This document shows, one piece after another, positions 4,392 to 55,269 of a stretch of 64,000 bases of DNA. Source of the stretch: Gaertneriomyces semiglobifer (lineage: Eukaryota > Chytridiomycota > Chytridiomycetes > Spizellomycetales > Spizellomycetaceae). The stretch's first letter is position 1, and each line of letters begins with the position of its first letter. Where the stretch lies: positions 186,001 through 250,000 of the forward strand of contig JAHLKF010000023.1 in the NCBI GenBank assembly GCA_025558075.1, written 5' to 3'. The notes under the pieces are model-generated. The model was not told where the DNA came from and made no database searches. It saw nothing but the letters and a program-made list of their open reading frames with translations. The position numbers and the translations under genes were made by a program.

Positions 4392-5132
4392 ATGATTCAA
4401 GCCTTATCGCTTACCCGCTCCATGCCGGTCCAATCCTTCCGGAGCATGGGGAGCGTTATCCGCGTCAATGCGTTCCACACAAGCAGGTCCGTATTGAAGA
4501 GAGATGATAAGGAAGATTATAGCCAGCCGAAAAAGAACCCAGGTTGGCGGTCGGCTTTCATGGCATCGGCAGAGGAGGACAAGCAGCGAGGAAAGAAAGA
4601 TCGCGTTCAGGCAGTACAGTGGGGTGAGTCGTCGTGTTGATATGTGCCACAAGCAGCCAACTCATGTCTGTGCAGCCAAAGAAGGATGGAGCCACAACGC
4701 TTTAAGGTTCGCAGAACATTGGAGATTCAAGCAATAGCAAACTCATGTATGGGCAAATCTCTAATTTGCTGATACAGTGGGGCTGCGAAGGCAGGTTTAG
4801 ATGCTAAACAGCGACAAGAAGACCCGGAGAGCCAGCGTCCACCCGTTCGCGCCGATAAATCGTACATTTCCGACTCTGCGCCACGTGAGTATATGGTTTC
4901 CCCTATTTGCCCAGTACCGTCACCTTTGCTGAGGCAAGCTTGTCGCTCCAAGGTCCAATCATAGGGTTGGAAGATCAAATCGGCGGCGGCAAGCCAAACC
5001 AAGAAACCACAGACTTCGTGAAGAAACATTCGAAATGATCTTTTCAGCCATCTGCTTGTTTCAGAGGAGCGAAGCATGACAATAACTGGAGTTGTTAACC
5101 GCTTCGCCGCCACGGGCCACTCATGTACATAA
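4392..5132 (+). CDS. Small putative mitochondrial protein, function unknown
   Basis: I do not recognise this protein. The first exon starts at the ATG at 4392 with a basic, Arg/Ser-rich stretch without acidic residues (RSMPVQSFRSMGSVIRV, then FHTSRSVLKR) that looks like a mitochondrial targeting peptide. In-phase splicing can join it to a 30-base exon near 4675-4705 (AKEGWSHNAL) and then to an exon from about 4780 to 4883 (KAGLDAKQRQEDPESQRPPV). Both joins use good GT..AG sites and restore one frame. The last exon is unresolved: acceptors near 4917 and 5064 give stops at 4964 or 5132, and I have drawn the longer one. The hydrophilic body suggests a matrix or assembly factor, but that is a guess. 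It converges on SRP72 with a gap of about 25 bp. Confidence 0.5.
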
Positions 5133-5155
5133 TCCATCGTAAACCAAGGCAGCAG

Positions 5156-35850: not shown

Positions 35851-36514
35851 ATGAGCACCGCCGAAATCACTTCCAAAAAGATCTTTGAGAGCAATGTGCT
35901 CCATGCCTCCATTGGGCTCGAGACAATGAAGGCCGGTGTGGTGGGAGGTGTTGCCGGGGCGTTGGCAGGCTCCGCATTCGGGTGGTGGGTCGCTATGCCA
36001 AGTAGAGAAATTATCAGAGAGGCTGCGTCAAAGTCTATGCTGTTTGGTAGGCATTGTATATCACTCATCGCGTAGCATTGATGCAGAATCTAATGTTCCA
36101 TGCTTCCTCATCAGCCGGAATTGGCGCTGCCTTCTACGGAACAAAGTGCACAGTTGCGCACATCCGTCACAAGGACGATATGTGGAACGCGCCCGTTGGC
36201 GGCCTCGTTGCTGGTGTTTTGCTTGGGTTAAGATGTAAGGGCCATAACGTACAATTGCTGTCGCAATCGCTTCTAAACCCGCCGGTCTCCTTCTAGCTGG
36301 TAAAATGATCAAGGTACTCGCTCATGGTGCCACCGTACCTGTGCTGATTGCCATTGCCGAGTGGGGCGCATACAACACATCAGCGAGAAAGGGTTTATCA
36401 TATGAGGAGAAGCAAGCAAAGCGGGATTCCGGAGTTTTCCAATGGCCGAGAAGGGATCCTTACCAAGAGCGGTGGGAAGAGATTCAGAAAAAAGAAGGGG
36501 CCACCTCTGCTTAA
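35851..36514 (+). CDS. Complex I accessory subunit NDUFA11 (B14.7 type)
   Basis: Three exons: 35851-36046, 36076-36234 and 36297-36514. The protein is a Tim17/22-like four-helix membrane protein. It starts MSTAEITSKKIFESNVLHAS, with glycine-rich helices GVVGGVAGALAGSAFGWWVA, then AGIGAAFYGTKCTVAHIRHK and APVGGLVAGVLLGLRSG, which align in order with the NDUFA11 helices. The last exon adds KMIKVLAHGATVPVLIAIAE and a hydrophilic tail (FQWPRRDPYQERWEEIQKKE). The tail is longer than in the human protein but of a kind seen in fungal orthologues. NDUFA11 sits in the membrane arm of NADH:ubiquinone oxidoreductase. Tim22-family import subunits are the main alternative; the tail and HIRHKDD segment favour NDUFA11. 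Confidence 0.8.
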
Positions 36515-36678
36515 ATTTTCTCATTCCCCTTTCTCATGTGAACTTTCGAAATCCAATTCCAATATGATACTCATTCCCCTTGACAATCAAAAAACCCCTT
36601 GGCATCGCTACTCCAATGTGTCATTCACGTCAAAAAAGTATATGGAATATAGCCACTACCAGACACATTTAATCAATG

Positions 36679-38232
36679 TCACCAGTGTGTGGGTGCCAAC
36701 AGCACATCTAGCAAGCCAAGTACTTCAAGTAGCTTCTCTTGTGTCTGAATCTCGGTGTGTACTTTTTGGCGCAATCGAGAGAACATATCATCGATTACGT
36801 AGGACTCTCCCATGATCCGATCGTACATATCTATGCGCGGAAATGTAAATAGACCGCCCGACGATCCTCAAACAAGAAGTACCGACTGCTTACCCAAAAC
36901 CAGCTCGCTCACTTTAACCAGAAACGGAGCATATCTAGGTTTAGTGATGTTCTTCATCAAAAATCGGAGCACCGGCTCCAAGGATTTCTCTGTCCGTCCA
37001 CTCAACGCTATCCTTAAACCCTGGCGTCTATGCAGCTCTTCCAGCAGTGAGACAATTATGATAGGACGATGGCTGCCGGATAACACCGCATCTAGCGCAT
37101 CCCCATAACGGAACTGCCGCATCAGTTTGTCGTATGCAGCAAGTTGTCTTCGTCTTTTGGCTTCAACTCGGATATCATGTACTTCCGGTTGATACTCTGA
37201 TCCACGCTTGAGGTATGCCTTTGTTGCTCTGCGAAAGTCTTTTTGTTTCGCGGCTGCAATGTCTTCTGTCTTTAAAAGCCTCTGCCTCATACTTAGTAGT
37301 CCACTATTCATGCCCACAACAAGATGTGTGTCGTCAGGTGAGACGCCAATGCTCTGTACCGGCGCTGGGTATTTGATGTTATGCACGACCTTGAAGTCGC
37401 GGGTGCTATAGACTTTGACATGGTGGTCCAACGAGCCTGTCAATAGGCGTGATGCACTTCCATCAAACGTCATGCATGTGATTGTCTTTTGGTGATTCGC
37501 TAGTCCTTGTATCATCCGGCCTCCACTGAGAAGATCCCATATCTTTACCGAGTTTCCACCTGCAGATGCCAATAGTCCACTCCCCGGAAACATCAGTAAT
37601 GACTCTACAGGAGCACCATGCTTCATGGTCATCGTACATTCCCCTGACCTAACATCCCATAACCGCACAGTATGGTCATACGAGCCCGTGGCAATTAAAT
37701 ATGGGTGTTCCTGCGAAACCAGTCCTGCTCTAACGTAATCCTCGTGCTCTCCAAAAATGACGACGGGCGTTTCCGTAGGTACGTCCCACACTCTAACCGT
37801 TTTGTCATCACTTCCAGATAGAACCTGCATGTGGTCCGGAGAAAACTTTGCTACGTGAACCGCTCCATCATGCCCTCGTAGAGTTCTCAAAATCGCCCTG
37901 CTGTTCAAATCAAACAGTTGCACCAAACCGGACGCATCTCCAGCCACTAGTAACTTTCCATCCCCTCTGATCGTCCCACTGTAAGCGGTATCTTTGAAAC
38001 GAGATATTGTCTTCTTGACTGTATGACTTCTGGTGCTGTAAACTTGGACTCGGGTAGAAGAAGTGACGGCAAAATCGTAGGGCGATATCGGAGAGAAGGA
38101 AATGGAGGAAATAGAGGCGTATTCTTTGACAAGGATGGGTGCTTGAAACTTTCTCCAATATGTTGCTTCTGCTGACTTGCGTCCCGCGGCCTTTGGGAAC
38201 CGCTTTACCGGCACCTTTCTGTAATCCGACAT
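36679..38232 (-). CDS. UTP15: Utp15, U3 snoRNP / small-subunit processome WD40 protein
   Basis: Two exons. I choose the second Met (38232, MSDYRKVPVKRFPKAAGRK); an in-frame ATG at 38241 would add three residues. Residues 1-300 form WD40 repeats (RTLRGHDGAVHVAKFSPDH, SGSDDKTVRVWDV, IATGSYDHTVRLWDVRSGE). The Utp15 C-terminal domain follows (RRQLAAYDKLMRQFRYGDAL, then VSLLEELHRRQGLRIALSGR). The last short exon gives MYDRIMGESYVIDDMFSRLR and ends LLDVLLAPTHW at the stop 36679-36681. Utp15 belongs to the t-UTP/UtpA complex, which binds nascent pre-rRNA in the nucleolus. Length and domain order are normal. Confidence 0.95.
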
Positions 38233-38241
38233 GATGTCCAC

Positions 38242-39568
38242 TCCGCTGTACCCCTCCTTCCGTTCGTCTCAATTACCTCCACTGTAGATGGCTTCTGTGT
38301 CCTGCTGCTCCTGCCTTGAAATTGATACGATTCTGTGAAAAATGTTGCAAAATGCAACGCGGCCAAAAAAACTGAGACTGGATTACGTCAGCCAAAATCC
38401 GACGCGTTCGTTTGCACTAACCCAGATACTAGGGCGAGGTCATCTCGGCATCACGAAGGAACTCTTGAACTCAGCGCCCATGGCATTTTGGCTATAACTG
38501 TTTGAACTCACGTCCTTTTGGTGGAGCTAACTACGGATACCTCTTAGCGAACCGTTGTGCATGCCAGCATCGGGTATTGGATGCACCCATCACGCAACAA
38601 GGACTGGTGTCTATGATCCATGCCGTGGTCCGAAATCATTGCTAGCAATTTGTTCTGTCAGGTCTTAGTAACTGAGGAAGGAGGGTGGTAATTAACATGC
38701 CAAAGGTGGAACGTATGAATTCAAGTGGTCGAAGAATCGGTTGTATGATGAACGACTGGCTAATGGCAGGAGTAACTCGCGGGGAAGTGCGACTCAACCC
38801 AAAGTATTCCGATTTTTGATGCCTCGGTCTTCCCTGGGCCGCATTGCAGGCACTTAGTATAATGAGACGTCTATCCTGTCAGACTTTGCGCGAGGACAAT
38901 GCTCTGCAGCGCAGAAAGCGCAACATTGTCTTTTGCGAGTGTCGTTTGCTACAGTTTGATGCCTTACCCAAGTGTTAGATGGGGTACAGCACAGTTTTCG
39001 TAGCAAGCAACGGGGGAATGGCAGACCCGGTCCTCAACAAACTGCGAACTACCAAATAGATATTGTGTGATTGATAACCAGTGGTCCCGCCGCCGTTCGC
39101 TTCGAACCCCCGATTCAAGACCGACGCTTTTGCACGGCCGTCTTGTTCGTTGGAACAAAGCATGAACGGAATGCAGGCAGAGTTGCGTGAATTCATCACA
39201 GTCGCATGTCGGGTGGGAAGGCCTTTGGAATTGCTCACTGAACAGATGTCCCTCTTAACTCTAGCAGCGTGAGCTGAGACTTTTACACCTTCTGGTCGTA
39301 GGCCGTCGGTAGAGTAGAGTAAATGGCTTACTGGTCCGCTTCTCTTGAATGAATCCAAAGTCCGAAGAGCAGCAACTCATCAGTTTGAGGGCAAGAAACT
39401 CGAAACTCGAAACTCATAACAGAAGCGCGTTGAGGTCATTTGGGAGCCATTGCTGCATGCCACCAGCTGGAAGGGTTTCTACTTATTTCAACACTCCACA
39501 GACGAAGAATAGCAGAGAATAACAGGGAAGAAACTCTCCAGTGACGTTTAAGAAAAAGAAGAGCCGAC
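38242..39568. other. Intergenic stretch with no supportable gene (1.33 kb)
   Basis: The longest gene-free interval outside the mobile-element region. A minus-strand open frame at 38975-39358 codes for a Ser/Arg-rich sequence without recognisable family features. An ATF-like half site is seen at about 38375. No tRNA, snoRNA box pair or repeat was evident by eye. Confidence 0.45.
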
Positions 39569-40074
39569 ATGCCGCCGTCCAGTTTCTCGTTGCGTCTTCA
39601 AAAGGGCAAGTCTTGGCATGCTCGCCTTATTCCGTAGCATGATGCTCATGCGCCGTTACGCTTGTTACTCTAGGCATTACAGGAGGTTTTGCGCCTCCTA
39701 CTCCAAACCAGGTTATCACAGTACATCGTTCGGACGGTGCAAATGAAATGGAAATAACACATCATAAGCGTGAATCAGGCACACCTCATCTGCAAAGTCT
39801 GGGCACAAAGTCCGCACCGGTGAATGAAGGCCACAAGGCTGCTCTCATCGCTGAGTTGGAGTCTCTTCTTAAAGGTCTGCCACAAGAGGAACCCCGCGGC
39901 AGTGAAGACATTTATGGTTTGGACACTGGTATTTTCTGGCAGAGTGCTGATTTCCAATGGGCCAACGCCGCACCGGAAGGTTGTGATCGTGGCCACAGCG
40001 ACGTACAGCCGTCCGAAGAGCAGGTCGCTAAATTCCAGCGTGCCGTCGACATAGTTCAACAGCTGGTGCAGTAA
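39569..40074 (+). CDS. Small protein of unknown function, spliced by a GC-AG intron
   Basis: I do not recognise this gene. The inferred exon 1 (39569-39605) encodes MPPSSFSLRLQKG. A GC-AG intron (AAGG/gcaagt at 39606 to ttacag at 39682) joins it in phase to GFAPPTPNQVITVHRSDGAN, and the frame runs to the TAA at 40072-40074, giving about 143 residues. The C-terminal half looks structured and constrained: DIYGLDTGIFWQSADFQWAN, APEGC, then an amphipathic helix QVAKFQRAVDIVQQLVQ. There is no signal peptide or membrane segment. Without the GC-AG intron the protein would start at the internal ATG at 39748. It lies head-to-tail with the cargo lectin gene. Confidence 0.6.
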
Positions 40075-40522
40075 AACGGTGGCTTCGTAGTAGCGACTGC
40101 CCTGCTAGGCTGACACATACATAGCGAATACATATACACTTCATCGTTCGCCGTCTGCTACACGTTATCGTTTGCTGCTCTGCTGTTACTGCTTCAAAGG
40201 CAACAATGATACTTTATGAGTTTCAATCATGAAATTTATTGCTCGTTCCTATGCGCTGCAATATGGAAATTTACGAAAGTTTCTAATGGAAAAGCGTCGA
40301 AAATTTCACGGCGCGAACAGAACCAGCGACTTGCCGATCTGCGAAAAGAACAGCGAACGGCCGTCAAGAACCTGGAAAGCGCTGGACAGTCGCCATTACT
40401 TTCTTTTTAATCAGCAAAGAGAGCCAGGCTACGGTTCTTGGAAAGCTGCGCCGGAGTTGTCTAACCTGTCAGGTTGATATTCCAACCAGAAGTCACCGTT
40501 AACCTCATAGAACAAGGGACAA
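40075..40522. promoter_or_regulatory. Spacer upstream of the cargo lectin gene
   Basis: A 448-bp tandem intergenic region. It includes an 81-codon open frame (40229-40477) that is basic, lacks family features and is probably fortuitous. It likely holds the 3' UTR of the unknown gene and the promoter of the lectin gene. Confidence 0.4.
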
Positions 40523-41620
40523 ATGCAGGTGCCGGCGCTATCATCATCACAGGCATTGCTCCTGGCTTTGTTGGCCGTAGCGCCTCTGACTGCCAATGCT
40601 CAAGTCATGGCCGACAAAGACGCAGGCGAAACACGGTACAAGCTGCACAGCTTTTCTTTACAGCCGCCGTTCATTGATCACAACCTGGAAAACAAGTGGT
40701 GGAACTTTGGAGGTGATGCCATTATGGAGGTAAACAAACATATTAGGCTGACGCAAGATAAGCCGTCAAAGTCGGGATGGGTGTGGAGTAAGGAGGTGAG
40801 CCTCAACCTGGCCCAGTCGTACCTTAGGAATGTGGTCCACGGCTAACCGCTATCCCTCAACAGCCAGTCACAGCCACCTCATGGTCCATTGAGTTCGATT
40901 TTAAGGTGCACAGCGAACACACTGGGATGCATGGTGATGGGTTCGCCTTCTGGTACACCCGCGAGAGAGAACAACGCGGCCCAGTTTTTGGAAACAAAGA
41001 TTACTTCCAAGGACTTGGCGTCTTCTTCGACACCTACGCCAACGCGCGTCACAAGCATGGGTTTCCGTACATCAATGCCATGACCAACGACGGCAAATTG
41101 TCGTACGATGTTAGTGACGATGGCGCCAAAACTGAGATTGGTGGATGTTCTTCCAACTTTAGGCAAAAGGACCATCCGACCAGGGCCAAGATCACCTACG
41201 TCAAAAGCGACTATTTGAAAGTCGAGGTGGACGTAAAGGGGAGCGGCCAGTGGGAGGACTGTTTTACTAGTTACAATGTTACTCTTCCACTCAACGGTCA
41301 TTTTGGATTTACCGCACTCACCGGCGACGCGTCCGATACCCATGATCTCCTTTCTATAACGTCATATGGTATCTCCAAGGTAAGTTTCGCATTATATTTC
41401 TTTAGTTCATCCGATCACTTACATCTTTCATTCGGCGCTTCAAAAGCCCAACCACTTAATGCCGAAACTCAACGATCGGCCGCTCGCCACAACTCAAGCC
41501 TCTAGCGCCGGCTGGGGATTTTTCACTAAGCTGTTCTTCCTCATCGCACTTTCTGGAGTGGGCTATGTTGCGTATGTAGCTTTGAAAAAGCGGGAAACAT
41601 CTTCCTACAAGCACTTTTAG
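40523..41620 (+). CDS. VIP36/LMAN2-type L-type lectin, ER-Golgi cargo receptor
   Basis: Three exons: 40523-40795, 40864-41379 and 41447-41620. A signal peptide (ALLLALLAVAPLTANA) is followed by the legume-lectin fold: WWNFGGDAIM, GMHGDGFAFWYTRERE, FGNKDYFQGLGVFFDTYANA, INAMTNDGKLSYD, GGCSSNFRQKDH and GDASDTHDLLSI. These keep the Ca- and mannose-binding residues (Asp of FFDTY, His and Asp of THD). The last exon supplies one transmembrane helix (KLFFLIALSGVGYVAYVAL) and a short cytosolic tail KKRETSSYKHF, with basic and aromatic C-terminal sorting features as in VIP36 and ERGIC-53. These receptors carry high-mannose glycoproteins between ER and Golgi. The lack of a long coiled-coil stalk favours VIP36 over ERGIC-53. 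Confidence 0.94.
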
Positions 41621-41642
41621 TTGTAGAGTAAGATAGCGACCT

Positions 41643-41658
41643 TAGGCTAGGCTAGGCT
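41643..41658. repeat. Short direct repeat (taggc)3
   Basis: Three tandem copies of a TAGGC-like pentamer between the lectin stop codon and the 60-bp tandem repeat. Confidence 0.6.
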
Positions 41659-41661
41659 GCG

Positions 41662-41797
41662 TATTATAGTGTCCAAAAATAGTGCACTACTACGAATACA
41701 TCAGGTCACTGAGCAACTATATATTATGGTGTGCAAAAAGAGTGCACTACTACGCATACATCAGGTCACTGAAATAGTATATATTATAGTGTGCCTG
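41662..41797. repeat. 60-bp tandem repeat, about 2.3 copies
   Basis: Copy 1 spans 41662-41721, copy 2 spans 41722-41781, and a third starts at 41782 and loses similarity after about 14 bases. Copies share the core AGTGCACTACTACG, a following ATACATCAGGTCACTGA and a leading TATTAT, with about 8 differences in 60 positions. The array lies 3' of the Fanzor relic on its strand, where transposon ends and guide-RNA sequence are expected in this family. That association is inferred. Confidence 0.85.
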
Positions 41798-41821
41798 ATA
41801 GGTACTAGGCGATTGTAATAG

Positions 41822-41852
41822 GGCCTAGTTCTGCCTTCAGCAGACCTAGAGG
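41822..41852 (-). other. Imperfect hairpin 3' of the Fanzor relic
   Basis: Perfect 5-bp inner stem (TCTGC at 41830-41834 with GCAGA at 41840-41844) around a 5-base loop. After a mismatch the stem is extended by CTAG/CTAG at 41825-41828 and 41846-41849. It starts about 24 bases beyond the stop codon of the relic at 41876. A structured RNA or transposon terminus is possible; chance pairing is not excluded. Confidence 0.35.
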
Positions 41853-41875
41853 TCCGCGATGGCCATTGAAATTGA

Positions 41876-42415
41876 TCACTGTGATCGCTGAAACGGCACC
41901 GGTCTTTCTACATTCTCCCTGCTCATGGGGAGAACGTTCTTGCGTATGTTCCTGGCGGCTTTGACATCCGTGTTCCAGAACTGTTTGTGACAGGCATCTT
42001 GGCAGATTTTCACACCCCAGTGAGGGGAACTGTTCTTCGGGATTTCGCCTTCGCAGAGAGAGAGGTCCTGAATTCGTCATTCACGACTAGTTGACATTTG
42101 CCCCTCAACCGCCTTTGGAGCTGCTTCACTCCCGGTGTCGTCGCATGACCGCGGGAGTTGTGTCGAAACTTCCCATCACCAAGAGCTACAATGGTGTTCG
42201 GGTTGCTCTCGGTGATTTCATCCACCAGCCTATCCCATGCAACTTCTTTACTGATGTAAGCGTCTCAATGCTACCTCCAGGTAGGCGAGATAGGCGGTCA
42301 CCGTCGAAAACTTTGACAGAAGGCATGTTCTTCTCCATCTGCCATACGGTGGGGTTGCTTCGTCTCCAACGATTCTGCAGGCGGTTTTTCCGTTTTATGC
42401 CGGCCATGGAGTAGT
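41876..42415 (-). pseudogene. Fanzor (eukaryotic TnpB-like) nuclease relic, C-terminal half, frameshifted
   Basis: Reading 42415 down to 41876 in shifting frames gives TnpB/Fanzor landmarks in order. They are WRRSNPTVWQMEKNMPSVK (the ME..MPS.K block of Fanzor1 proteins), then TAYLAYLEVALRRLHQ in another frame, then GDGKFRHNSRGHATTPGVKQ and VVNDEFRTS. After another one-base shift come LCEGEIP and CQDACHKQFWNTDVKAARNI, the degenerate zinc ribbon followed by the RuvC-III motif with its Asp. The reading ends at a TGA at 41876. The RuvC-I part is missing, one zinc-ligand Cys pair is damaged, and at least three frame breaks occur, so it cannot encode an active enzyme. Fanzor proteins are RNA-guided DNA nucleases found in eukaryotic mobile elements, including those of chytrid fungi. 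Confidence 0.8.
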
Positions 42416-42672
42416 GACAACCGTTCTCCGCCTTGGAACGCACACAGTAGCAACGTCCGATGACCATCCTATCTGGTTGAGTTTGGTCCGAATGAGGTGG
42501 AATTGAAAGGCGTATGGTGTGATCACTCCGATGTGCTCCCCCTTAGCTTCATACTTCTTCAAAGTCTTGACCCATTCAACCACAGCGTCTGCTTCTGCTT
42601 CGTTGCTCCCGGAAGTACCGTCAGCCTGTCGGACAGCTGTCCCATCATTGACATTCGTGATCGCTACAGGCT
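42416..42672 (-). pseudogene. UPF1-like SF1 helicase relic (C-terminal motor fragment)
   Basis: The minus-strand frame after a TAG at about 42672 gives NVNDGTAVRQADGTSGSNEA, then EADAVVEWVKTLKKYE and GEHIGVITPYAFQFHLIRTK. These match the second RecA domain of UPF1/SETX/ZNFX1-type SF1 helicases (FxNV...EA..V, IGVITPYxxQ). After SSDVATV a small deletion breaks the frame, and AFQGGE (motif V, normally DAFQGxE) follows in another frame. No motif I-III sequence and no motif VI is visible around it. It abuts the Fanzor relic at about 42415. It may be part of the same element or an unrelated gene fragment. Confidence 0.65.
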
Positions 42673-43061
42673 AGTCGTCCCTTGGCAACAAGTGTGACAT
42701 ACGCAGCAGAGTAATAAGCATCGAGCTGGTTTCACAGTAGAAACTCCGAAACAGCGTCAAATCGCTGCAATCGCTTCGGAAGATGGCGGTCGACCACATG
42801 TCATCAAGAGAATATCGACTGTGGGAATTTGGAAAGTTTACCGCCCTAGAATTCGCCGAATGCTCTATTCATGTAGTGATGCCGAATAAAAAGAATAAAA
42901 ACCGTAGGCCCTCATTGGACTTCATGACTAATAGGGACGAGCGAACCACCGACATTCGCGCTTTCTGTTTGTATTCACACCTTGTCTTCTTTGTTCCCGG
43001 ATTAAAATTCATATATTATTCTCTACCTCCAAAAAGCGACCTTCGACATGGGTAACCAAAT
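42673..43061. other. Spacer between helicase relic and MPS1, no supportable gene
   Basis: About 390 bp, AT-rich towards MPS1. A plus-strand open frame (42783-43055) lacks family features. Weak helicase-like similarity may continue to about 42830 on the minus strand, but I could not establish it. Confidence 0.4.
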
Positions 43062-46000
43062 TTATGTCCCATTTCGCAGGCTTAGGCACAAATTCCTGGC
43101 GACATCGTCAATGTCGGCCTTGGGGTCCGTATCCCTAAGGTTCCAGACCCTAGATATAATCGTCTTGAGCATCTCTTCATCCACGACCACATGTCCGACG
43201 TGAGGATGGGAAACGGGATATAAAAACTCGTTCGACAACAATTGTGGTATCGTTGGTCTCAGCTTTGGGTCGCGGTGCAAGCACGCTCGCAGAGTAGAAT
43301 GGAGAGGATGCGATGCCCAAACTTCCGGCGTGATGACCGATTCCGCGACTGTACTGTCGCCTTGCCCACTGAATGCAGGAGGCGGGAAATGGATGACGTG
43401 TTCTTCATCCACAATGCTCTGCAACTTTTGTACGACGTTTGTCAAGTGTGCAAACGGTGGCCGCCCATACACCAGTTGATAAAGGATGCATCCGGCGCTC
43501 CATATGTCACTGGCACGGCCCATCTTCCAGCTTCGTCCCGTCAATCCACCGCTTTGAGCTTTGATGGCTTCCGGCGCCATGTAATTCAAAGTGCCAGTTT
43601 GACAGTCTCTTTGGATATTGGTGGTGTCGTTGGGAATGGCTTTGGCAATGCCAAAATCGCATAGCTTCAATTGGCCATGCACGAGAAGGAAATTGGCTGG
43701 TTTCAGGTCGGAGTGGATAATCGAGTTCTGGTGAATGATTTGGATGGAAAGCAGGATCTGCTCCCAGTAAAGGCGTATAAAGTTCATGGATGGATTAGGC
43801 GTACGGGCGAGGAGGCGTGCGAGATCTTGTTCACCAAATTCCAGAACAATAGACAGTATCTGTTTGTTTGCATCAAAGTCGTAGCCGTGAAGGTGGATTA
43901 TACGTGGATTGCCCTTTAGCCGGTCAAGAAGCTCAATCTCATTCCTGTAGCCTTGCACCGTGCTTGAATCGAGTCCGCGTAATTTTACACGTTTCAGTGC
44001 GTAGAGCTTGTGATCCGCAGGGTTCATGATCTTGTAAACCTTGGAAGACCCACCTCGACCAATACATTCCATTCGTCGATATGCAATACCGCGTATGACA
44101 ATTGTTTTATCTACCGATACCGCTGTCTGCCGATTATCCCAGTCTGGCTGAAGCTGAGGGATCGGTTGATTCAGTGCGCTCAACGTCGATACGGGATTTT
44201 GTGGAGCCTGTACAACACCGTTGTGAGGGTTCAGGCGATCACCCGGAGGCTTCATTGTAGGCGTTGCATCTGGGAAAGGATTATGTACTGCGGCGGAAGC
44301 GGGCGTACCTCGCGGAAGCGCGCTGTGAGAGGCATCGGCTAACGTCATGACCGTGGGTGTTGCTTGTGAGAGTGGCTGCATTGGTACCGTTGGTGCCGGT
44401 GTTGCAAACTGCTCTGCCTTCGGCGCAGAAACCGTTCGGCGCAAGTTAGCTGGAGTCCAAACGGAAGAGACATGATCAACGGTCTCGACAGTAGTTCCTG
44501 CACGACGCACTGGCGGCCGGCTGGGAATGGATGGAGTCGATGATGTCCAAGTTCTTCGCAGCAAAGGGTCAATGGTTTGTGATCGCGTGGGTTTTATTTC
44601 GGCGGGTTGCCGATCGATGGGGATTGTGTTAGAGGAAGAGCTCTGCATCGTTGGTATTGGTATATGGCGATTGGCTAAAATAACTCCATCGTGGTGTACT
44701 TGTGTGCTTAGAGACCCAGAATCTGTTTGTTCGTCGTTGTTGGGTACCGCCGTGGTGGTGTTTCGATTAATGACTGGTGCAGATGCGAGCTCTCTTGGGC
44801 GAGGGTCATCTGGCGTATCCAATGATGACAGGATGTTGTTTGATGATGTTCGATCTCGAGCAAAAGCGCTAAGGCTTGACTCGGCGTCGAAGTCATTGTA
44901 AAGCGATTTGTCTGAGGATAACGTCAACAAACATCAACTGAAAAGCACAGAATACCAACATACCATCGCCAGATTCGGATCTTTGACTACCATTGGCCGT
45001 TACAAAGGAACCGTTGGACATGAATGATTCGTTGGAAGACGCGAATGAGTGGGCAACCGAGCTTGAAAGCGCACTGCCCAACATCACGGAGGCGTCAGGT
45101 TCCTCATCACTACGTTCACGAGTAGGTTGGTTTCTAGCCACGCGAGCAGGCGGACCTTCAGGAGGATATTAATACTGAGTCCTAATTCTGTGAGGGCTCG
45201 GGAGACCTACCTAATCGAGTCATTTTTAACCTCCCTAACGGGCGGTTCCGCGAGAGGACTTTGCTGGCGAAAGCGTCTATCAGCAAACGAATGTGGCTTA
45301 TCACTATGCTTTATGTGCTCACTTTTCCAGAGGTAGTTCAAGAGAATTCGGCACGTTTGGTTCTTTCCCAGGTGAATTTCGAGGGGACACGGAAGTGGTA
45401 GCTGATTTAGATATTGAGGTCACCGGCCTGTTTTCTTTATCCTGTAGATAAAGGTGATTTAGTTTTGCTCTCATTGGAAGGCGGGAGAGTGCCACGGCAA
45501 ATCTAGCAACCTACCGCGTGAATGTCCATCCCGTGTTTAACTGGCGGTGACATGCTGGGTGCCCGCTCTACCACTGACACGCTCAAAGCAGCATCTCCAC
45601 TGTAACTGCTGATGGAATTCTCGTTCACCGGTAACGAGCGTGAAACAAGGTGATTATCGGGCGGCGGCACAGTTGGACCCTCACGAACCCGGTTTAGCAA
45701 GAGTCGCAGTTCATCTTTCTCATGCTCTGGCACTGTAGCAATGCCAGACATGAGCAAGCTCTGCGCTTTGGCAGCGTTCCCTGTTAGCCGCAACGGTATG
45801 AGCGCAGGAATGACTCAGGCGATGCATGTCAACCAACGCACCCGTGGACATTTCAAACTCTGCCCAAGATTTGTAAAACCTCCCACTCTGCGCTCCAACC
45901 CTCATCGCCTTTAGCATCTTGTACTGGTCGCGAACAGAAGATTCGTCGTCTCCACGCTTCTGCCGAAGCTCTAAATATCGAGTCCATATCTCAATCAACG

Positions 46001-46265
46001 CTTTAGAATCGCGGTTTTTCTCTGCGGGGATTTTCCGGGTAGCCTCTTCATACAGTCTCATCAATATTCTCTTGCTGCTGTTACCGCTGATGGAAACGGC
46101 ACGTATATTTCGCAGCCATTGGTCCGGATCCACCTGGCAAACTTGGGTAATGCGTTCCAGAGAAAACGGTTCCTGCTGAACCTGGGCGGCGTACACGGAC
46201 GATGGTTGATAGTGGGTTTGCCTGAGACTTGCCAGGGAGGCTGAATTATTGTTCTCCTCTACCAT
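43062..46265 (-). CDS. MPS1: Mps1/TTK spindle-checkpoint kinase with N-terminal TPR
   Basis: At least four exons, about 930 residues. The start at 46265 gives MVEENNNSASLASL. The N-terminal TPR-like domain of Mps1/Bub1 type follows (SKALIEIWTRYLELRQKRGD, then KSWAEFEMSTG and AKAQSLLMSGIATVPEHEKD). A long Ser/Pro-rich disordered region leads to the kinase domain: G-loop IGRGGSSKVYKI, Lys in ALKRVKL, HSDLKPANFLL, DFGIAKA, QTGTLNYMAPEA and DIWSAGCILYQLVYGRPPF. These are the Mps1/TTK hallmarks. The kinase localises to kinetochores and phosphorylates Spc105/KNL1 to start the spindle checkpoint. Keeping the TPR, which budding yeast has largely lost, resembles animals. The stop is at 43062-43064. 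Confidence 0.93.
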
Positions 46266-47042
46266 GACTCCAAACTACGCCTCAACAGTTGGCGCGAGAT
46301 TCCATCCGCGTGCAATCGTCCGCCACCGTCCGCTCCAAGTTGCGCTTCCATTAAACCCGGCACGTCCCTCCCGTTCTCTGCTTCGCGCCGAACCTTATCA
46401 ACCGATTGTTTCCTCCTCCCTGGCTTGTTCCTCGGAACCCTTGCGCCTTCGTCGTCGTTGTCGTTGTCGTTGTCGTCGTCGTCGATGCACCGTCCGTTCG
46501 ACCTTTCATCGAATTCACCGATGTTCGACGACGGTTAAAACTTATTATCGATAGACGTATTGTGTCCTTACGCAATCAACTTCCACGTGACGCGCTTACA
46601 TAACCTAAACGCGTGGCGGAGTTGTTCGATGACGCTCCATTTGCGCGCGCGCGATTATTATTTTAACCTTGGCGGGTCTCTCGGTCTCGCTCTCTTAGTA
46701 TATATGAGTGTGCTGTAGAATCTTTTGACCTTCTTTTAATTTGCTTCCTCGCAGCCTTAAAAGCCATTTTTCAGCCCATCTAGCTGTCTAATTCATTCTT
46801 TCTTCCCGGTGGTGTGGAGGGTTCCTGATTGCTTTGAGTGACTTGGCCTGGAATCGCCGCCGCTTTATTTACATCTACACGTGAATCGTCCATTCATCGG
46901 AAAGCCCCATCCGGTCAAGGTCATCCGTACTGGCGTTAGTCAGTCAGCGAATTTACTCTTCAAAAACCAGGACAACGCCGACGTATTCTCCCACTCACCT
47001 ACGCACTCCTCTCTTGAGCCCCAATTCAGTACATAGAACGCC
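46266..47042. promoter_or_regulatory. Divergent intergenic region MPS1 / YSC84
   Basis: A 777-bp spacer. It holds a TCG/TTG-type trinucleotide repeat (46449-46484), a TATA-like stretch at about 46698-46705, and pyrimidine-rich sequence towards the YSC84 start. No gene is seen. Confidence 0.5.
46449..46484. repeat. TCG/TTGTCG microsatellite
   Basis: About twelve TCG-type triplets, with TTG interruptions, in the 5' region of MPS1. On the minus strand it would read as a run of Thr-type ACG/ACA codons. Confidence 0.75.
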
Positions 47043-48254
47043 ATGGGCAAGGTCAAACTGAACCCGCACCTCCCAAACGTCTCCAAGATTGGACGTGCCA
47101 CCATTCACTCGCCGCTGCCAGACTCGCTATCCGCAGACCTGGCAAAGGCAACGAGTATCCTCGAGCACTTCATCAAGGGCACAAACAAGGCCGATCAATC
47201 AATGATTCCGCCAAAGGTTATTGCGAAAGCGAAAGGGTATGGCGCAAGATCTTTTGAGTGGCATTAATTTAGCCAAGTTTTCTCACAAGCTTCATTCGTA
47301 TAGGATTGCAGTTATTACCATTCTTAAAGCTGGCTTTGTATGGTCTGGTCGGGCTGGGTCGGGGATTGTAGTTGCTCGATTACCCGATGGCCGGTGGTCG
47401 GCACCAGCAGCCATTGCCGCAGCCGGTGCCGGGTTCGGTGCACAAATCGGCGCTCAGCTGACGGATTGCGTCTTCATCCTGAATAACGATGCTGCCGTCA
47501 AGGCGTTCAGTCACGGAGGAAACTTGACTTTGGGTGGGAATATGAGCGTGGCTGCGGGGCCAAAGGGCCGTAGCGTCGAGGGTGCTGGTTGTGAGTACAA
47601 GATGTGGCTTCTAGAGTGCCTGTGTGATATGTGCTTGTCGCTTACACATCACCTATTTCTCTAGCGATGATGAACTTTGCGCCCATTTACTCGTATTCAA
47701 AGTCCAAAGGCCTTTTCGCAGGTGTTTCTCTTGAAGGCTCGGTTATCTTGACCCGTAATGACGCAAACAGAGACTTATATGGTCGCAAAGTAACAGCCAA
47801 AGAGCTCCTAAGCGGCGAAGTGTCGCCACCGGTACAAGCGGAAGCCTTATACCGTATCCTGAATTACAAATTTGCGAACCTCGGGACGGGGATAGTGCCC
47901 ATGAAACCGGGCGCAGAAATGGCGGACGCTTCTGGCCCTAAGCGCTCGTCGACTATGGGCGGCGGCAGCAGAGTAGGCATTGCCGCGGCGGCGGCGGGGA
48001 CCGACGTACAGCGAAGCGCTTCGGTTGGAACGGCTGGAAAGCGAGCACCGCCTCCACCTCCTCCTGGCATGGCAAAGGCTGCTGTCACTACTGCAACAGC
48101 GCTGTATGATTTCAATGGTGAACGCGAATCCGATTTGTCGTTCCGAAAAGGAGATACCATTACCGTCATAAAAAGTGGTGGTGAGGCCGACTGGTGGGTT
48201 GGCGAATTAAATGGGAAACGAGGAGATTTTCCAGGGAATTATGTACGGTTGTAA
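47043..48254 (+). CDS. Ysc84/Lsb3/SH3YL1-type SYLF + SH3 protein
   Basis: Three exons. The start at 47043 gives MGKVKLNPHLPNVSKIG. A SYLF (DUF500) domain follows: SMIPPKVIAKAKG, then after an intron IAVITILKAGFVWSGRAGSG, APAAIAAAGAGFGAQIGAQL and VFILNNDAAVKAFS. The next exon gives NFAPIYSYSKSKGLFAGVSL. A proline stretch (APPPPPPG) leads to a C-terminal SH3 domain (ATALYDFNGERESDLSFRKG, then WWVGELNGKRGDFPGNYVRL). The SYLF domain binds phosphoinositides and actin, and the SH3 binds endocytic partners such as Las17. The family acts at actin patches in endocytosis. Length and architecture match fungal Ysc84 and animal SH3YL1. Confidence 0.95.
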
Positions 48255-48767
48255 GATGAAAGAAGGGACTGTGGGTTGATTCGTCCGTTTGATTGAACGT
48301 TTTTGGTTACAAGCTTGACATTTGAACGTTGAACTTTCATGTTGGACATTTTGGTTTTGATGTACACTTTTTTACTTTCACTGTTCAATAGATTCAGTTG
48401 ATGACCTATAATATGAGATGACAATCTAAAACTGCAAATTTCGCCCTGTTAGAGATGCTGGTGACGTGCGGTCACCTATTGTCCAGATGGACAAGCTAAA
48501 GATATCGAATACGCTGTAACCACCACTGCTGTATTGTCACTGGCAATACGAAATGAAGTGGTTGTCCTTGTCCGTTTTATAATCTTGGGCAACGGTTCAC
48601 GCAGTAAGCTATGCGAGAGATGCGTGAAGTATCTTCAATTGTTAATGAAGAAGTTTATTCGGAGTCGATGGACGCATGACGGTTTCCCTATTACGTTTGT
48701 TTTTCCTACATGGACGTACTTCTGCTCTATAGGAAAGATTCAAACTAGAACTCGCAGGCTATTCGAA
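48255..48767. other. Convergent 3' spacer YSC84 / NIT1
   Basis: A 513-bp convergent intergenic region that probably holds both 3' UTRs. It is AT-rich near 48300-48420. An open frame at 48534-48854 mostly overlaps the end of NIT1 on the opposite strand and is likely fortuitous. Confidence 0.5.
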
Positions 48768-50382
48768 CTACTGTGCGTTGTTGGTTTCTACCACCTGATA
48801 GACACTATCTGCTCTGTGTGCCTCAACAGGCATAGAAGTTCGGACGTTCCTTAAAAAATCTAAATCAATTTCCGCGTACGCAACGGTCCCAGCTTTGTCA
48901 GGGCATTGAGCTAGGATAGTGCCTACCATAGCTGGTTATTACAGCAACTCAACGCCAGATAAAAATTTCTTACTTACCCCAAGGGTCAATGATCATAGCA
49001 TGTCCAAAGCTGGCTCGCTTGCTGTTGTGCTCCCCGACTTGAGCCGCTGCGATGACATAACTGTTGGAGTCGATGGAAAAATATAAGCCGGAGAATGAGG
49101 CCTGCAAACAATTGGAAATAACGAACGGATCAGCAAACGACATACCATTGCGTCTCAATCGCGCGAGCACGCAGTAACGTCTGTATGATTTTGAATAAAT
49201 ATCAAACAGCCAGACCCATAGCGCAAAGGGCATCCTAGCAATTACCTTCCAATGTGCTTGACCTGTTCTACGACACAACATCGCAAGCGAGTGAATAATG
49301 AATCGCAACCACCGGCACGGTCTTCGTCACACTCACTTTATCGTGAAAGCCGAAGGATACGTAAGGATCTCGGCGCCCTTCTTCCGCAGCAGCCATGACA
49401 TTTCTGTGGAGTCCAGCAGACAGGTTGGTTGAGTTCTCAAAACGTACAAATGGCCTGCCAGCGCGATTATTACCAGGGAAACGCAGGTCGTAGCATACGG
49501 CCAGGCCGAGATTTCCTACAGGAGTGGCAACGGGCGACGGTACTGAGAACGCCGAGAGGACTTAAGTAATGTTGTTTGAGAAAACCCTCGGTGCCCGCGG
49601 GATAGTTACTTTCCGTTCCGGCGGTAGTGTGAGCCGACTCCAATAACCGTGGTCCGGAAGGAATGTCCTATACCATGAGATGTGTTTATCGTCAAGTTGT
49701 GAAGGCTTAGCCAAGAAGACTCCAACCCATACCACATCGAATAAGTGAATCTGGGGCAGGCCATCACGAGAGTGTTACAGCATGGATTTTGGATGGTTTG
49801 GTCCTCATACAACAGCGCTTACTTTTTGATACCGCCCGACGATAGCACCGGTATCACTTATTACTGAGAGAATCAGCGTCAGTGTAGTAGTTCACACATT
49901 GTGAGTTCAGTAACTCAGCGTATTACCTAGATGCACATTGGCCATCTTTCCATGGTGCCCTTGCTCATGTACGCCAACGGATATATAAATGGCATTGGCC
50001 TGTGCTGCGCTTTGCAGACACGCAGTGAACGCAGGGTTGACGAGGCCTAGAGCATCGGCAGACGTCAAAGCGATAAAGTCACTGAGAACGTTTTGATGAA
50101 CTTTGAGTTCGCAGAATCGCAATTTCAGTCGTTTTCACCTCGCTTCGGGGAAGAAGATCATCTGAGGGCATCCATTAGTGCTACTGTCAGGAAATGCCAG
50201 CACAAATCCGAAATACCTTTGCCCCTTTTGCAGCTGCTGCCTCGATGAGTTCGACGCATGTTTTTTGGTTCGCTTCCAAAGACGCCGTGGAACATATCTG
50301 GCCTTGCAACAAATCAGTTTCCGCAGCCAATTGCTTCCAGAATGTGCGGGTCCAACGACACCTGCGCAACGGCTGCCAACAT
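48768..50382 (-). CDS. NIT1: Nit1-type amidase (deaminated glutathione amidase), nitrilase superfamily
   Basis: Many short exons. The start at 50382 gives MLAAVAQ, spliced to ICSTASLEANQKTCVELIEA, then MIFFPEASDFIALTS, which carries the catalytic Glu. Later exons give AIYISVGVHEQG, VISDTGAIVGRYQKVHLFDV with the catalytic Lys, and NLGLAVCYDLRFP with the nucleophilic Cys. YVIAAAQVGEHNSKRASFGH and MIIDPWGK follow, and the last exon ends DSVYQVVETNNAQ at 48768. The order and the VGxHNxKR..GH..IIDPWG block match Nit1, which hydrolyses deaminated glutathione as metabolite repair. Some middle introns (49.2-49.8 kb) were not resolved exactly. It is not fused to a Fhit domain. Confidence 0.87.
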
Positions 50383-50552
50383 GATCTCAACAATGGGCGC
50401 TAAGACTTGATACTCAAGATCTACGTTTGCAGAACGCTCATAACGCGTTGGACTTCAAGGATCAGTGCTCGGCACACACACAGACGAGGACACTGTTCCA
50501 ACGTCGCCATTCGCAGTTTCTCGCCGATCGGTTGTTCGTCGTTGTCACCATC

Positions 50553-51251
50553 ATGGACCATATTAGACGGCTTCTAGGGCCGTTTGTGCCGAAAGACGTT
50601 CTGCCATTGATCTTCCCGCATCCTGCTCACCCCCAGCAAGCATCACTGAAGCAAACACTCAGCAAGCCCAACCCGGCTGCTGGTAAAGAGGCCAGTCTTT
50701 CTGCCGCATGGTCTCAAATCACAGAGGATGGCAGCTCGTTTTTGACAAGGGTAAGTGAATGCATTGCCTTGGACGTACACTTAAGCACAACCTTGTCCCA
50801 ACTTTGCCTATTCCTTCTTTTGTACCGTTAGGTTGATTTCAATGATCCCTTCATCCTATCTATAGTAGGCTTCCACCTGTGTATGGGTCTATGGGTGCTC
50901 GCTACTCGGAGTTCATATGCGCTGACAGTGTTCAATCTTTTCCTTCTCAGTAAGTAGCTATGCTTATGAACGGTCCACATTGCTTCATTGTTGCTTGGTC
51001 GGATGCTGATATGATTGCGGGATATAGGTGGTATGATCTTGTTGACGTCCTCGTTGCAGAAGTATTCACATCTCCTGCCTCTGCCGCAGCGAACATACTT
51101 TGAGGACTCTGGAGCGGCATTTGTGCTCATATTCTGGGCGGCACCACTGCTGGCCTACTTGGTCATCGTAGTATTCGTACTGATGGGGAAGGTGGTGAGT
51201 TCCATGACGGAACTTCGCCAGAAACAGATGCAGACGAGGAAACGAAAGTAG
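50553..51251 (+). CDS. TMEM18: TMEM18 homologue
   Basis: Three exons. The start at 50553 gives MDHIRRLLGPFVPKDVLPLI. The conserved core begins after an N-terminal extension: ITEDGSSFLTR, then VDFNDPFILSIVGFHLCMGL with a first membrane helix. A second helix follows (LTVFNLFLLS), then MILLTSSLQKYSHLLPLPQR and TYFEDSGAAFVLIFWAAPLL, with a third helix and a basic coiled tail (RQKQMQTRKRK). This matches TMEM18, an integral inner-nuclear-envelope protein of animals and plants that is absent from most Dikarya. Its molecular function is not settled. The basic tail may act in nuclear targeting, as in the animal protein. Confidence 0.88.
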
Positions 51252-51928
51252 CCTATCAAATGCAACCCCTATTCCTTGACCAATACAATCACCACATACC
51301 AGTGAATACCAGGTGCGATCTGGTCTCACATTTCTACGGATGGAAGGGTTGGAAGCTGAGGAACATGCGTTCTGACCCAATTCCAATCATACTGCCATGC
51401 GTTCATAGTCTTGCAATGGAGTCAATCATTCGACAGCATTTCATGCAGTAGGTTGGTAATAAAAGCCATGATCCTCCCTCCATTCTATCCCTCCAATCTA
51501 TTCCTCCGTTCAAATGAATGTCTCTTCGCTCGCATAAAACAGTCCCTAGAAGTTCATGTCCTTCAGTGGACCGTTCATCCTCATCGTTCAGCCATTGACC
51601 ACCGCCGCATTGCTGCCCACCCAGCAAACACTGCTGAAGCCATTGTTCCCTATCCAACAACTACATATACAATGTATTAAATTGTTCAAATAAGCGAAAT
51701 GTCGATCCAGAAAACGAGGTGGGTAAGGCACGCATTCTTTTTTACGAGCGCATTCTTAATCCATTGTTTCTTTGACATTTGCATTTCCTCGAACATTGTA
51801 CTTAAAGAACGGCAAAGAAGAGAGAGAAAAAGAGAACGAGAAGGAGAAGAGTTACTGAGACTTGGAGGAGCAGACGAAAGGAGATTAATTGATTGTGGAG
51901 GTACCCTCAACTGTCGCACACTATTGCA
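51252..51928. promoter_or_regulatory. Spacer TMEM18 / REI1 with purine-rich leader
   Basis: A 677-bp tandem intergenic region. A strongly purine-rich run at about 51810-51860, with repeated GAGA, precedes the REI1 start. Open frames on both strands between 51400 and 51680 show no family features. Confidence 0.45.
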
Positions 51929-53272
51929 ATGGACGTAGAAGCCCGTTCCGTCACTTCGGAGACAGCGTCCGACTTTTCCGACCTGTCGCATCTCTCAACC
52001 GCAACAGGAGCAACAGGTCCGTCTACGATGGCGAGTTCAACGACGCCCCGCAGTCACCTTTTCACTTGTCTCGCATGCCACGTCGCCTTTCGGTCCGCCG
52101 AGCACCAGCGAGAACACATGCGCTCCGACTGGCATCGCTACAACCTGAAGCGAAAAGTAGCCGAGCTCCCACCTGTGTCCGCCGAGGCCTTTGCTGAAAA
52201 GCTCACTTCGCAGAAACGCACCACTGTGGATGAAGAAAAGAAGGCTTCCTATGCCGGCGAGTGCCAAGCATGCGGTAAAAGTTATTCCACCGAGAATGCA
52301 TTCGAAAATCACAAGGCCAGTAGAAAGCATAAGGAGCAACAGGCAAGGTTTGACTTGATGAGAGAAAAGGGGATACAGCCACAGAAGAGTTCATCCACAG
52401 ATCAGCAAGAAACTAGCGCCGAAGCACAATCTACTAACTGGCGCCAGGCGCTTGCGTCCGCGACGTCAGAAGCCGAATACAATGAAATTCTTGACAAAAA
52501 GCTAGCATCGCTTCCCCGTTTAACCGAAGTGCAGTGTCTGTTCTGTACTGCCTCGGCCGACACCTTCGAGTCGAATCTGGAACACATGGCCAAAGCGCAC
52601 AGTTTCTTCATTCCTGACGTGGAATACCTGGTTGATATCAAGGGGCTTATCAAGTACTTGGGCGAAAAGGTTGCTGTTGGCCACGTTTGTCTGTCCTGTA
52701 ACGGCAAGGGGAAGGGTTACCACAGCTTAGAAGCCGTGAGGAAACACATGGTGGATAAGGGCCACTGTAAAATTGCGTATGAAGACGGGGCGGAGTTGGA
52801 GGTGAGCGACTTTTACGATTTCAGCTCCACCTACCCTGATGAAAAGGATGATGATTGGGAGGATGTTGACGGTGAGGAGATTTCTGCCGCGGATGCGGAC
52901 GATGTGCAAAGTATGGATGATGACGACGAGGACGAGCTACCGCCAGCGACTCCCGTAGCCATCAACGAATCCGGCACGGAGCTTATCCTCCCGAACGGTC
53001 GCTCCATTGGTCATCGTCACCTCAACCACGTCTGGCGTCAGAATGTGCGCCCGGCCGTCGCAAAGGACTCTACCGTCATCAATCGTCTTATGGGACAGTA
53101 CCGTCTGCTCGGCTATGAGCCGACTCCCTACGAGATTGCCCAGCAGCATCACGAGCGCCGTATACAAGCCAAAAAGCAAATGCGGACAGAGCACGAGTTC
53201 AAGTCAAGAGTTGGACAAAGAGCGAACAAGTTGCAAAAGCATTTCCGAAGCCAGATTGGTTTCGGTGTTTAG
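51929..53272 (+). CDS. REI1: Rei1/ZNF622, cytoplasmic 60S ribosome maturation factor
   Basis: Single-exon protein. I choose the ATG at 51929 (MDVEARSVTSETASDFSDLS), since upstream in-frame sequence has no ATG. Four C2H2-type fingers are seen: FTCLACHVAFRSAEHQREHM, GECQACGKSYSTENAFENHK, VQCLFCTASADTFESNLEHM and HVCLSCNGKGKGYHSLEAVR. An acidic stretch (DDDDEDELPPATP) and the conserved C-terminus with INESGTELILPNGRSIGHR complete the family layout. Rei1 helps remove Arx1 from late pre-60S particles and probes the polypeptide exit tunnel with its C-terminus. The length of about 447 residues is normal. Confidence 0.95.
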   Translation: MDVEARSVTSETASDFSDLSHLSTATGATGPSTMASSTTPRSHLFTCLACHVAFRSAEHQREHMRSDWHRYNLKRKVAELPPVSAEAFAEKLTSQKRTTVDEEKKASYAGECQACGKSYSTENAFENHKASRKHKEQQARFDLMREKGIQPQKSSSTDQQETSAEAQSTNWRQALASATSEAEYNEILDKKLASLPRLTEVQCLFCTASADTFESNLEHMAKAHSFFIPDVEYLVDIKGLIKYLGEKVAVGHVCLSCNGKGKGYHSLEAVRKHMVDKGHCKIAYEDGAELEVSDFYDFSSTYPDEKDDDWEDVDGEEISAADADDVQSMDDDDEDELPPATPVAINESGTELILPNGRSIGHRHLNHVWRQNVRPAVAKDSTVINRLMGQYRLLGYEPTPYEIAQQHHERRIQAKKQMRTEHEFKSRVGQRANKLQKHFRSQIGFGV

Positions 53273-53431
53273 AGTCGCTGTCCGGCGCATTTCCGTTAGG
53301 TCATCAGACACGCTTTTTCCATCGATTCTATACTTGCTGTACTGCCTACTATGTTTGAAATAAACTAATTGACGATTACAAATTTTGACATGGCAACATG
53401 GCACCGGATTGAAATGCACTAACTCGAAAAT

Positions 53432-54901
53432 CTAGTCTTTCCTACTTCGCTTCGGCGTTTTTCTAAGGTCATCTACTGACTCTACGCCTTCCAAAATTCC
53501 ATGCAGAAACTTCCGTTTCCCCTGACCGTAATCACCTGCGCCTTGTCCTTTGCCGTAGAGGCGATACTTGTAAATAACAAGCCCCTCTAGCCCAACGGGA
53601 CCTCTAGCGTGGGTCTTATTTGTGCTAACGCCAATCTCTGCTCCAAAGCCGTACCTGAATCCGTCTGCGAACCTGGTAGAGGCGTTATGATACACACCTG
53701 CAGAGTCGACTCGGGACATGAAGACGTCAGCGGTTTGTGCGGAAGCAGTGACGATCGCATCAGTATGATGTGAGCCGTGGGTGTTGATGTGGGTCATGGC
53801 TTCTTCAAGGGAAGTAACGGTTAAGACTGAGAGGGCAAGCGTGAGGTACTCGGTCTGGTAAGATTCCGGGGTGGCTGCAAACAGCGACTTGGCGTACTGT
53901 TTGAGATCTGGTGTACTTTGCAATAGTTCCAGGCTCTCCTTATCACAGTGTAATTCCACACCCTTCTCCAAGAGTGCCTTCGCCACACCGGGCAGCACTC
54001 GTTCCAACGCATTTTTATGGACAATGAGTGTTTCTACAGCATTGCATGCAGCCGGATAATTGCATTTGGAATCGACAACAACCGAAGTAGCGATGGCGAG
54101 ATCGGCATCCTCGTGAACATATACGGAACAAATGCCGTCCGCGTGGCCCAAAACCGGGATGCTAGTGTTGGATTGGACGTACTGGATCAGTTGCTTTGAG
54201 CCCCGAGGAATGACCATGTCAATGTAAGCATCTTGAGAAAGCAGAGAATCGATTTGTGAGCGGGTTGATACAAGAGACACGGCAGCAGGTGCGATAGTAT
54301 GCTTTACGTCTTCGGCAAGCGTAGACAGAGCGTATTGCAGTGCTTGAAACAGGGCCTTGTTCGAGTGTGATGCTTCTTTCCCGCCCTTCAATATGACTGC
54401 GTTGCCAGACTTGATGGCTAAGCAAGATATTTGAACAACTACTTCCGGACGAGCTTCAAAAATAATGAGAAGCACTCCAACAGGGCATGTTATTCTGAAA
54501 AGATCCAGGTTTGTATCGAGATGAGTCGCCAGAGTCACCCGGCCGGTTGGATCGGCAAGCCTCGCAACATCCAGGACACCTTGCAAGAGCGCCGAGTACT
54601 TTTCCTCCGTTAGAGCGAGGCGAGAGAAGAGAGAATTCGAGAGAGTGCCCTGTTCTACTTCTGCTTTTGCCGCCTACAAAATGCACTGACTGTTTCAGTA
54701 AAGTCTTCGATCTGCCGCTTATTAAACAGCTGCCTGTACCTCCAAATCAAGCTGATTGGCCGCTAGGATTTCATTCTTTCTCTCTTTGAGAACGTCGTGA
54801 AATCTTTGCAATGCAATGTTCTTTTGGTCATTTGAAGCACTTTGCAAAAGCAAGGCCGCCAACTTTGCTTCCTTGGCTATCGCCGTCGCATCATCCGCCA
54901 T
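53432..54901 (-). CDS. PRO2: Gamma-glutamyl phosphate reductase
   Basis: Two or three exons. The start at 54901 gives MADDATAIAKEAKLAALLLQ, and an intron near 54680-54740 joins to the main exon. The aldehyde-dehydrogenase-like fold has PVGVLLIIFEARPEVV and ILKGGKEASHSN. The catalytic Cys lies in CNYPAACNAVETLIVH. GFRYGFGAEIGVSTNKTHAR and GPVGLEGLVIYKYR are the diagnostic C-terminal motifs. The enzyme reduces gamma-glutamyl phosphate to glutamate semialdehyde, the second step of proline synthesis. It is a separate ProA-type protein and not a P5CS fusion with glutamate 5-kinase, as in other fungi. Confidence 0.95.
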
Positions 54902-55269
54902 AGTAGCTTATGGAATTACCGGTGATGGAAATGACCGTCTTCTGATAGCAGATCACCACGCTGGGATCGGTTCGACTACCTCTTGACCAGTGTTACGCTT
55001 TAAAGGCACTTCCGTTGCAGAAAAGACGTCCTTTTTCTCGCGAAAATGTAATGCGAGGAAACAGACGAGATCAAGATCGAAACAGATGAAGCTCTCTCAA
55101 GTTGCATATTCAAATGAGAAACAATTCCAGACGAATGGTGGATGCTAAAATGGATTCTCATATGAAATAGGAATGCAAGTCTATATGTAAATCTATGTAT
55201 ACTACGACGTTTCCACTAGTTACAGCCATGCCAGTCTCCATCAAATCACTACAAATGGGCACTTCTTGC
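54902..55269. other. Spacer PRO2 / ZNF277, no gene seen
   Basis: A 368-bp interval between the PRO2 start and the end of the ZNF277-like gene. It probably holds the PRO2 promoter and the ZNF277 3' UTR. Confidence 0.45.

What the first reader, a model, noticed from the sequence alone, without database searches (positions are those of the whole stretch)
41876..42415. Fossil Fanzor (eukaryotic RNA-guided nuclease of the TnpB family)
Seen: minus-strand frames contain, in order, an ME..MPS.K block, a GDGKFRHNSRGHATTPG block, DEFRTS and CQDACHK with FWNTDVKAARNI. Known: the last is the zinc-ribbon plus RuvC-III signature of TnpB/Fanzor, and active Fanzors were described from chytrid fungi. Inferred: this is a dead copy of a Fanzor1-type element. 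It lacks RuvC-I and carries several frameshifts, so an intact relative with its guide RNA may exist elsewhere in this genome.
Basis: partly seen in the sequence, partly recalled or inferred. Interest (0 to 1): 0.88.

Follow-up and report, generated by a model that had tools for sequence, protein, structure and literature searches.

The report
Dead fragment of a Fanzor1 gene

Summary

The genome is Gaertneriomyces semiglobifer. RuvC-I and everything before it are missing. The fragment abuts an equally broken piece of a UPF1-type helicase. Five other clear Fanzor1 loci were found, all broken. A nearly complete gene on contig C13 is of a different, Fanzor2-like type. The window copy groups with two other relics (93/92), apart from the relic that has inverted repeats.

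Verdict: an ordinary transposon fossil, a dead new member of a known kind. Interest is low. The hoped-for intact Fanzor1 was not found.

The parts
41876..42416 (-). Fanzor1 pseudogene fragment: from about 26 residues after the RuvC-I position of its relatives to the natural C-terminus and stop
42311..42416 (-). first block (HYSMAGI ... MEKNMPSVK), own frame
42064..42264 (-). second block (AYISKEV ... GDGKFRHNSRGHATTPG ... DEFRTS), second frame; relocated RuvC-II glutamate at 42075
41876..42061 (-). third block (rest of zinc ribbon with three of four cysteines, FWNTDVKAARNI with RuvC-III aspartate at 41968, C-terminus), third frame
42428..42670 (-). fragment of a UPF1-type helicase (AAA_12), broken at both ends, abutting the Fanzor1 fragment
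   Evidence: Pfam AAA_12 5.4e-11; 119 against a null maximum of 47 with the C6 helicase
41662..41794 (.). tandem repeat, 60-nt unit, 2.2 copies, 3' of the fragment; no second place in the genome found
40828..41505 (+). flanking host gene: legume-like lectin (PF03388); context only
43062..44933 (-). flanking host gene: protein kinase (PF00069), convergent with the lectin gene; context only

Best explanation
A 5'-truncated, frameshifted pseudogene fragment of a Fanzor1 gene, left by an old transposable element in the spacer between two convergent genes of the chytrid Gaertneriomyces semiglobifer. Its living ancestor would have worked as Fanzor1 does: a transposon-borne RuvC nuclease guided by an RNA from its own element (known for Spizellomyces Fanzor1; inferred here). 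The copies diverged mostly while still coding; the window copy then decayed by frame-changing deletions and lost everything before the middle of the RuvC domain. Shown: homology, frame changes, lost RuvC-I, lost zinc cysteine. Inferred: that it makes no nuclease, and that an old transposon brought it.
Against: The fossil alone finds no Fanzor in Pfam or the PDB. No terminal repeats or target-site duplication were found around it, so the transposon origin rests on the family and on the C7 relic. The P0085 model is of moderate confidence (mean pLDDT 67.3; zinc ribbon partly under 50). The tree group of the window copy is not starred.
Confidence: 0.96

Rival explanations
1. It is a fossil of Fanzor2 or of a bacterial-type TnpB rather than of Fanzor1.
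For: The zinc ribbon and RuvC-III are shared by all of them; in the profile search two LaTranC chains (0.0027, 0.003) rank above Guillardia Fanzor1 (0.006).
Against: Best PDB matches by profile and by fold are Fanzor1. The genome's Fanzor2-like gene shows no Fanzor1-level match: L014 scores 74 with P0085 but 1643 with P0001, while the fossil scores 363 with P0085.
Confidence: 0.02
2. It is a living gene whose frame changes are introns or assembly errors.
For: No in-frame stop in the aligned pieces; the database gene model of the related C7 relic uses introns (P0079).
Against: At the frame changes the fossil is shorter than its relatives, not longer. RuvC-I, the N-terminal half and a zinc cysteine are missing.
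Confidence: 0.01
3. The helicase piece and the Fanzor1 piece are remains of one composite transposon that carried both genes.
For: They abut within about 12 b, on the same strand, both broken.
Against: None of the 19 AAA_12 matches in the genome lies within 40 kb of another Fanzor1 relic; the nearest case is an AAA_12 gene 7 kb from the Fanzor2-like relic C10:342k. Only an 84-residue internal helicase piece is present. The word helicase occurs twice in the main text of PMC3627910, and the passages shown do not pair a helicase of this type with Fanzor1.
Confidence: 0.05

Closest known systems
Spizellomyces punctatus Fanzor1 (SPu-1 element; SpuFz1, PDB 8gkh, 9ceu)
   Different: SPu-1 has 17 full-length copies, nine with intact ORFs, and 33-bp inverted repeats (PMC3627910 passage); the window copy is a single truncated fragment without detected repeats
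P0085, P0083 and kin (unnamed full-length Fanzor1 proteins, 685-739 aa) and Borealophlyctis nickersoniae HK104_004841 (P0080, 621 aa)
   Same: Best matches to the fossil: 100 identical of 212 (P0085) and 85 of 172 (P0083) aligned residues
   Different: Complete, with DPG and N-terminal half, where the fossil has only the C-terminal part
C7:202k relic of the same genome (BC832DRAFT_430388 in the database, P0079)
   Same: Fanzor1 relic in the same genome, with frame breaks
   Different: Longer, keeps RuvC-I DPGR, reads V where the relocated glutamate is expected, lies between 59-b inverted repeats, and belongs to the Borealophlyctis-like group (98/99)

Membership tests
Fanzor1 | C-terminal motif D-X(125,275)-[TS][TS]-x-x-C4 zinc finger-x(5,50)-RD (PMC3627910, abstract) | tested here: not met
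   Fossil: RuvC-I D absent, TS present, three of four cysteines, T in place of R before the D. Met by its complete relative P0085: D491, T652 S653, C656, C659, C675, C678, R684 D685. So: derived from a Fanzor1 gene, not a functional Fanzor1
Fanzor1 | DPG in RuvC-I and relocated glutamate six residues before the zinc finger (PMC10711439, passages) | tested here: inconclusive
   Glutamate present at 42075, but the first cysteine that sets the spacing is lost; DPG region absent. P0085 has DPG at 491 and E649 with C656
Fanzor1 | Closer in sequence and fold to Fanzor1 than to Fanzor2 or TnpB | tested here: met
Fanzor1 | Carried by a DNA transposon (terminal repeats, target-site duplication) | tested here: inconclusive
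   None found at the window, C10:450k or C9:358k copies; present at the C7:202k relic
Fanzor1 | RNA-guided DNA cleavage | not testable with these tools
   Needs RNA and biochemistry. The window's 3' flank folds better than most shuffles (z -2.7, 2 of 200), the C7 flank does not (z -0.3); this settles nothing
UPF1-type helicase (AAA_12), for the neighbour | Complete AAA_11 + AAA_12 helicase core | tested here: not met
   Only 84 residues matching the middle of AAA_12; the rest not found beside it

The most novel reading that the evidence does not exclude
The window, C9:358k and C10:450k relics are remains of a Fanzor1 lineage that died out in this fungus and that, at least once, travelled with a UPF1-type helicase in a composite element, a pairing I saw in none of the Fanzor passages read here.
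Probability: 0.05. Interest if true: 0.45.

Novelty: new member of a known kind. Interest (0 to 1): 0.2.

Why it matters
It indicates that Fanzor1 elements of at least two lineages entered Gaertneriomyces and that the copies found are all broken, whereas Spizellomyces keeps intact ones. Such a contrast could help ask what keeps these elements alive. The window fragment itself is one short data point.

Tried and rejected
Led nowhere: Pfam and PDB with single pieces or with the fossil alone (best PDB match in 45 is TIM10 at E 1.3); PDB with one piece of the C7 relic (unrelated chains at 0.34-0.58, Parasitella Fanzor1 at 0.62); protein-database search with one piece (no candidate); DNA search for sister copies (self only); search for RuvC-I upstream; terminal repeats around the window, C10:450k and C9:358k copies; the helicase C-terminus beyond the Fanzor1 stop, which would have shown an insertion into a helicase gene (22, against 21-35 in 12 null tiles).

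Rejected: TnpB/Fanzor2 identity; a living gene with introns; a recurrent helicase-Fanzor1 element.

Literature: Gaertneriomyces with Fanzor and Fanzor with pseudogenes found 0 papers each in the held library. Subscription papers and supplements were not searched.

Full report
WHERE. The window is contig C23:186001-250000 of a genome of 20.86 Mb in 66 contigs. Two database proteins named as Gaertneriomyces semiglobifer lie on contigs of exactly 572,120 and 924,567 b (P0020; P0079), the lengths of C10 and C7 here. The genome is therefore that chytrid fungus. The finding lies in a spacer of about 1.4 kb between two convergent genes: a legume-like lectin on the plus strand (PF03388, 8.6e-59) and a protein kinase on the minus strand (PF00069, 2.2e-55).

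OBSERVATION. I wrote a local protein-to-DNA aligner that allows frame changes. With a read-through of the better preserved relic on C7 as query it gave one alignment from 42416 to 41884, score 203.5, 60 identical residues in 183 columns, four frame changes, no stop. Nulls: 102 other tiles of the window, mean 38.5, SD 4.9, maximum 52; 100 shuffled queries and the reversed query against the same DNA, maximum 56. Against complete database proteins the fossil scored 233 (P0080), 310 (P0078), 338 (P0081), 312 (P0082), 355 (P0083), 329 (P0084) and 363 (P0085); the more distant P0095, P0096 and P0097 gave 92, 79 and 67. The null for P0080 reached 77 over 58 tiles, so these last three are not informative.

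ANATOMY. The fragment begins about 26 residues after the RuvC-I aspartate of P0085 (D491) and runs to the natural C-terminus and stop. Kept: the relocated RuvC-II glutamate (42075), the second, third and fourth zinc cysteines, and the RuvC-III aspartate (41968). Lost: the first zinc cysteine; the arginine before the aspartate reads T (the third cysteine is read from the alignment). In the alignment with P0083 there are three frame changes and no stop, and at the frame changes the fossil is shorter than its relatives: deletions, not introns. RuvC-I and the N-terminal half were not found within 36000-56000.

THE NEIGHBOUR. Directly upstream, 42670-42428, lies a piece of a UPF1-type helicase (AAA_12, 5.4e-11). 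An 84-residue stretch of the C6 helicase (an open frame with AAA_11 and AAA_12) matches it with score 119 against a null maximum of 47; the rest of that helicase is not found beside it. Its best matches elsewhere in the genome are 41% (C1), 38% (C6) and 39% (C7:154k) identical. Of the 19 AAA_12 matches in the genome none other lies within 40 kb of a Fanzor1 relic; one lies 7 kb from the Fanzor2-like relic at C10:342k. Chance joining of two dead fragments by deletion is the simplest reading (inference).

OTHER COPIES. P0085 as query gives 13 matches in the genome and P0080 gives 8, all partial. Clear Fanzor1 loci besides the window are five. C7:201.8-203.0k has three frame changes and a stop against P0078, V for the relocated glutamate, and 59-b inverted repeats 92% complementary and 2380 b apart, found nowhere else. 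C10:450.6-451.1k has three frame changes. C9:357.6-358.4k has two frame changes and, in an inserted stretch, five stops. C9:31.7-32.3k holds two tandem pieces, 82-83% alike. C7:544.2k has four frame changes. Weak matches at C4:573k, C15:13k and C16:293k were not studied. The tool warns that its counts are lower bounds, so an unseen copy is not excluded. On the Fanzor2-like side (my label: best PDB match mimivirus L79, which titles Fanzor2; DPG and relocated glutamate read by eye), the C13 locus aligns with residues 2-535 of the 537-aa P0001 with one frame change (316 identical of 532 aligned). C10:342k has 12 frame changes and 9 stops, and C7:267k is a fragment.

HISTORY. In a tree of 24 rows and 293 columns the window, C9:358k and C10:450k copies form one group (93/92; window with C9 at 87/72) near P0081-P0086. 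The C7:202k copy groups with Borealophlyctis P0080 (96/88) inside a group at 98/99. Only 5 of 21 inner branches are starred, the window group is not one of them, and the chosen outgroup did not hold together. Differences by codon position are 0.24/0.27/0.51 (window-C9, 86 codons) and 0.43/0.39/0.67 (window-C10, 132 codons): most divergence arose while the copies still coded for protein (inference).

MECHANISM. [quoted passage not shown] abstract passage and others). Fanzor1 genes ride on several superfamilies of DNA transposons (PMC3627910; abstract and passages). DPG and a glutamate six residues before the zinc finger mark Fanzor proteins (PMC10711439; passages). The ancestor presumably worked that way (inferred). 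The fragment lacks half of the catalytic domain and everything N-terminal of it (shown), so it should make no such enzyme (inferred). Its DNA flanks are unique, so no element boundary can be drawn.

VERDICT. The hope for an intact close relative in this genome was not borne out. It is an ordinary fossil of a known family in a species for which I found no Fanzor paper in the held library.

Noticed in passing
G000:C13:267-271k (L014, about 3965-5590, minus strand; L001): A nearly complete Fanzor2-like gene: 316 identical of 532 aligned residues with P0001, one frame change; PF07282 at 1e-14.
   Followed up: partly
G000:C7:200.6-203.2k (L012 2163-4660): Fanzor1 relic between 59-b inverted repeats, 92% complementary, 2380 b apart; repeats found nowhere else in the genome.
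   Followed up: partly
L044 3708-4342 (G000:C9:31.7-32.3k): Two tandem pieces of a Fanzor1 zinc ribbon, 82-83% alike, 458-460 b apart; each piece is also partly palindromic.
   Followed up: no
window 41662-41794: Tandem repeat of 60 nt, 2.2 copies, just 3' of the fossil; single place in the genome.
   Followed up: partly
L049 612-1776 (G000:C1:1314-1315k): Another apparently broken copy of the UPF1-type helicase family whose fragment sits beside the fossil: helicase motifs in two separate frames.
   Followed up: no
L017 4019-4107 (G000:C7:544.5k): A 26-b inverted repeat (hairpin) directly after the end of the C7:544k Fanzor1 relic.
   Followed up: no
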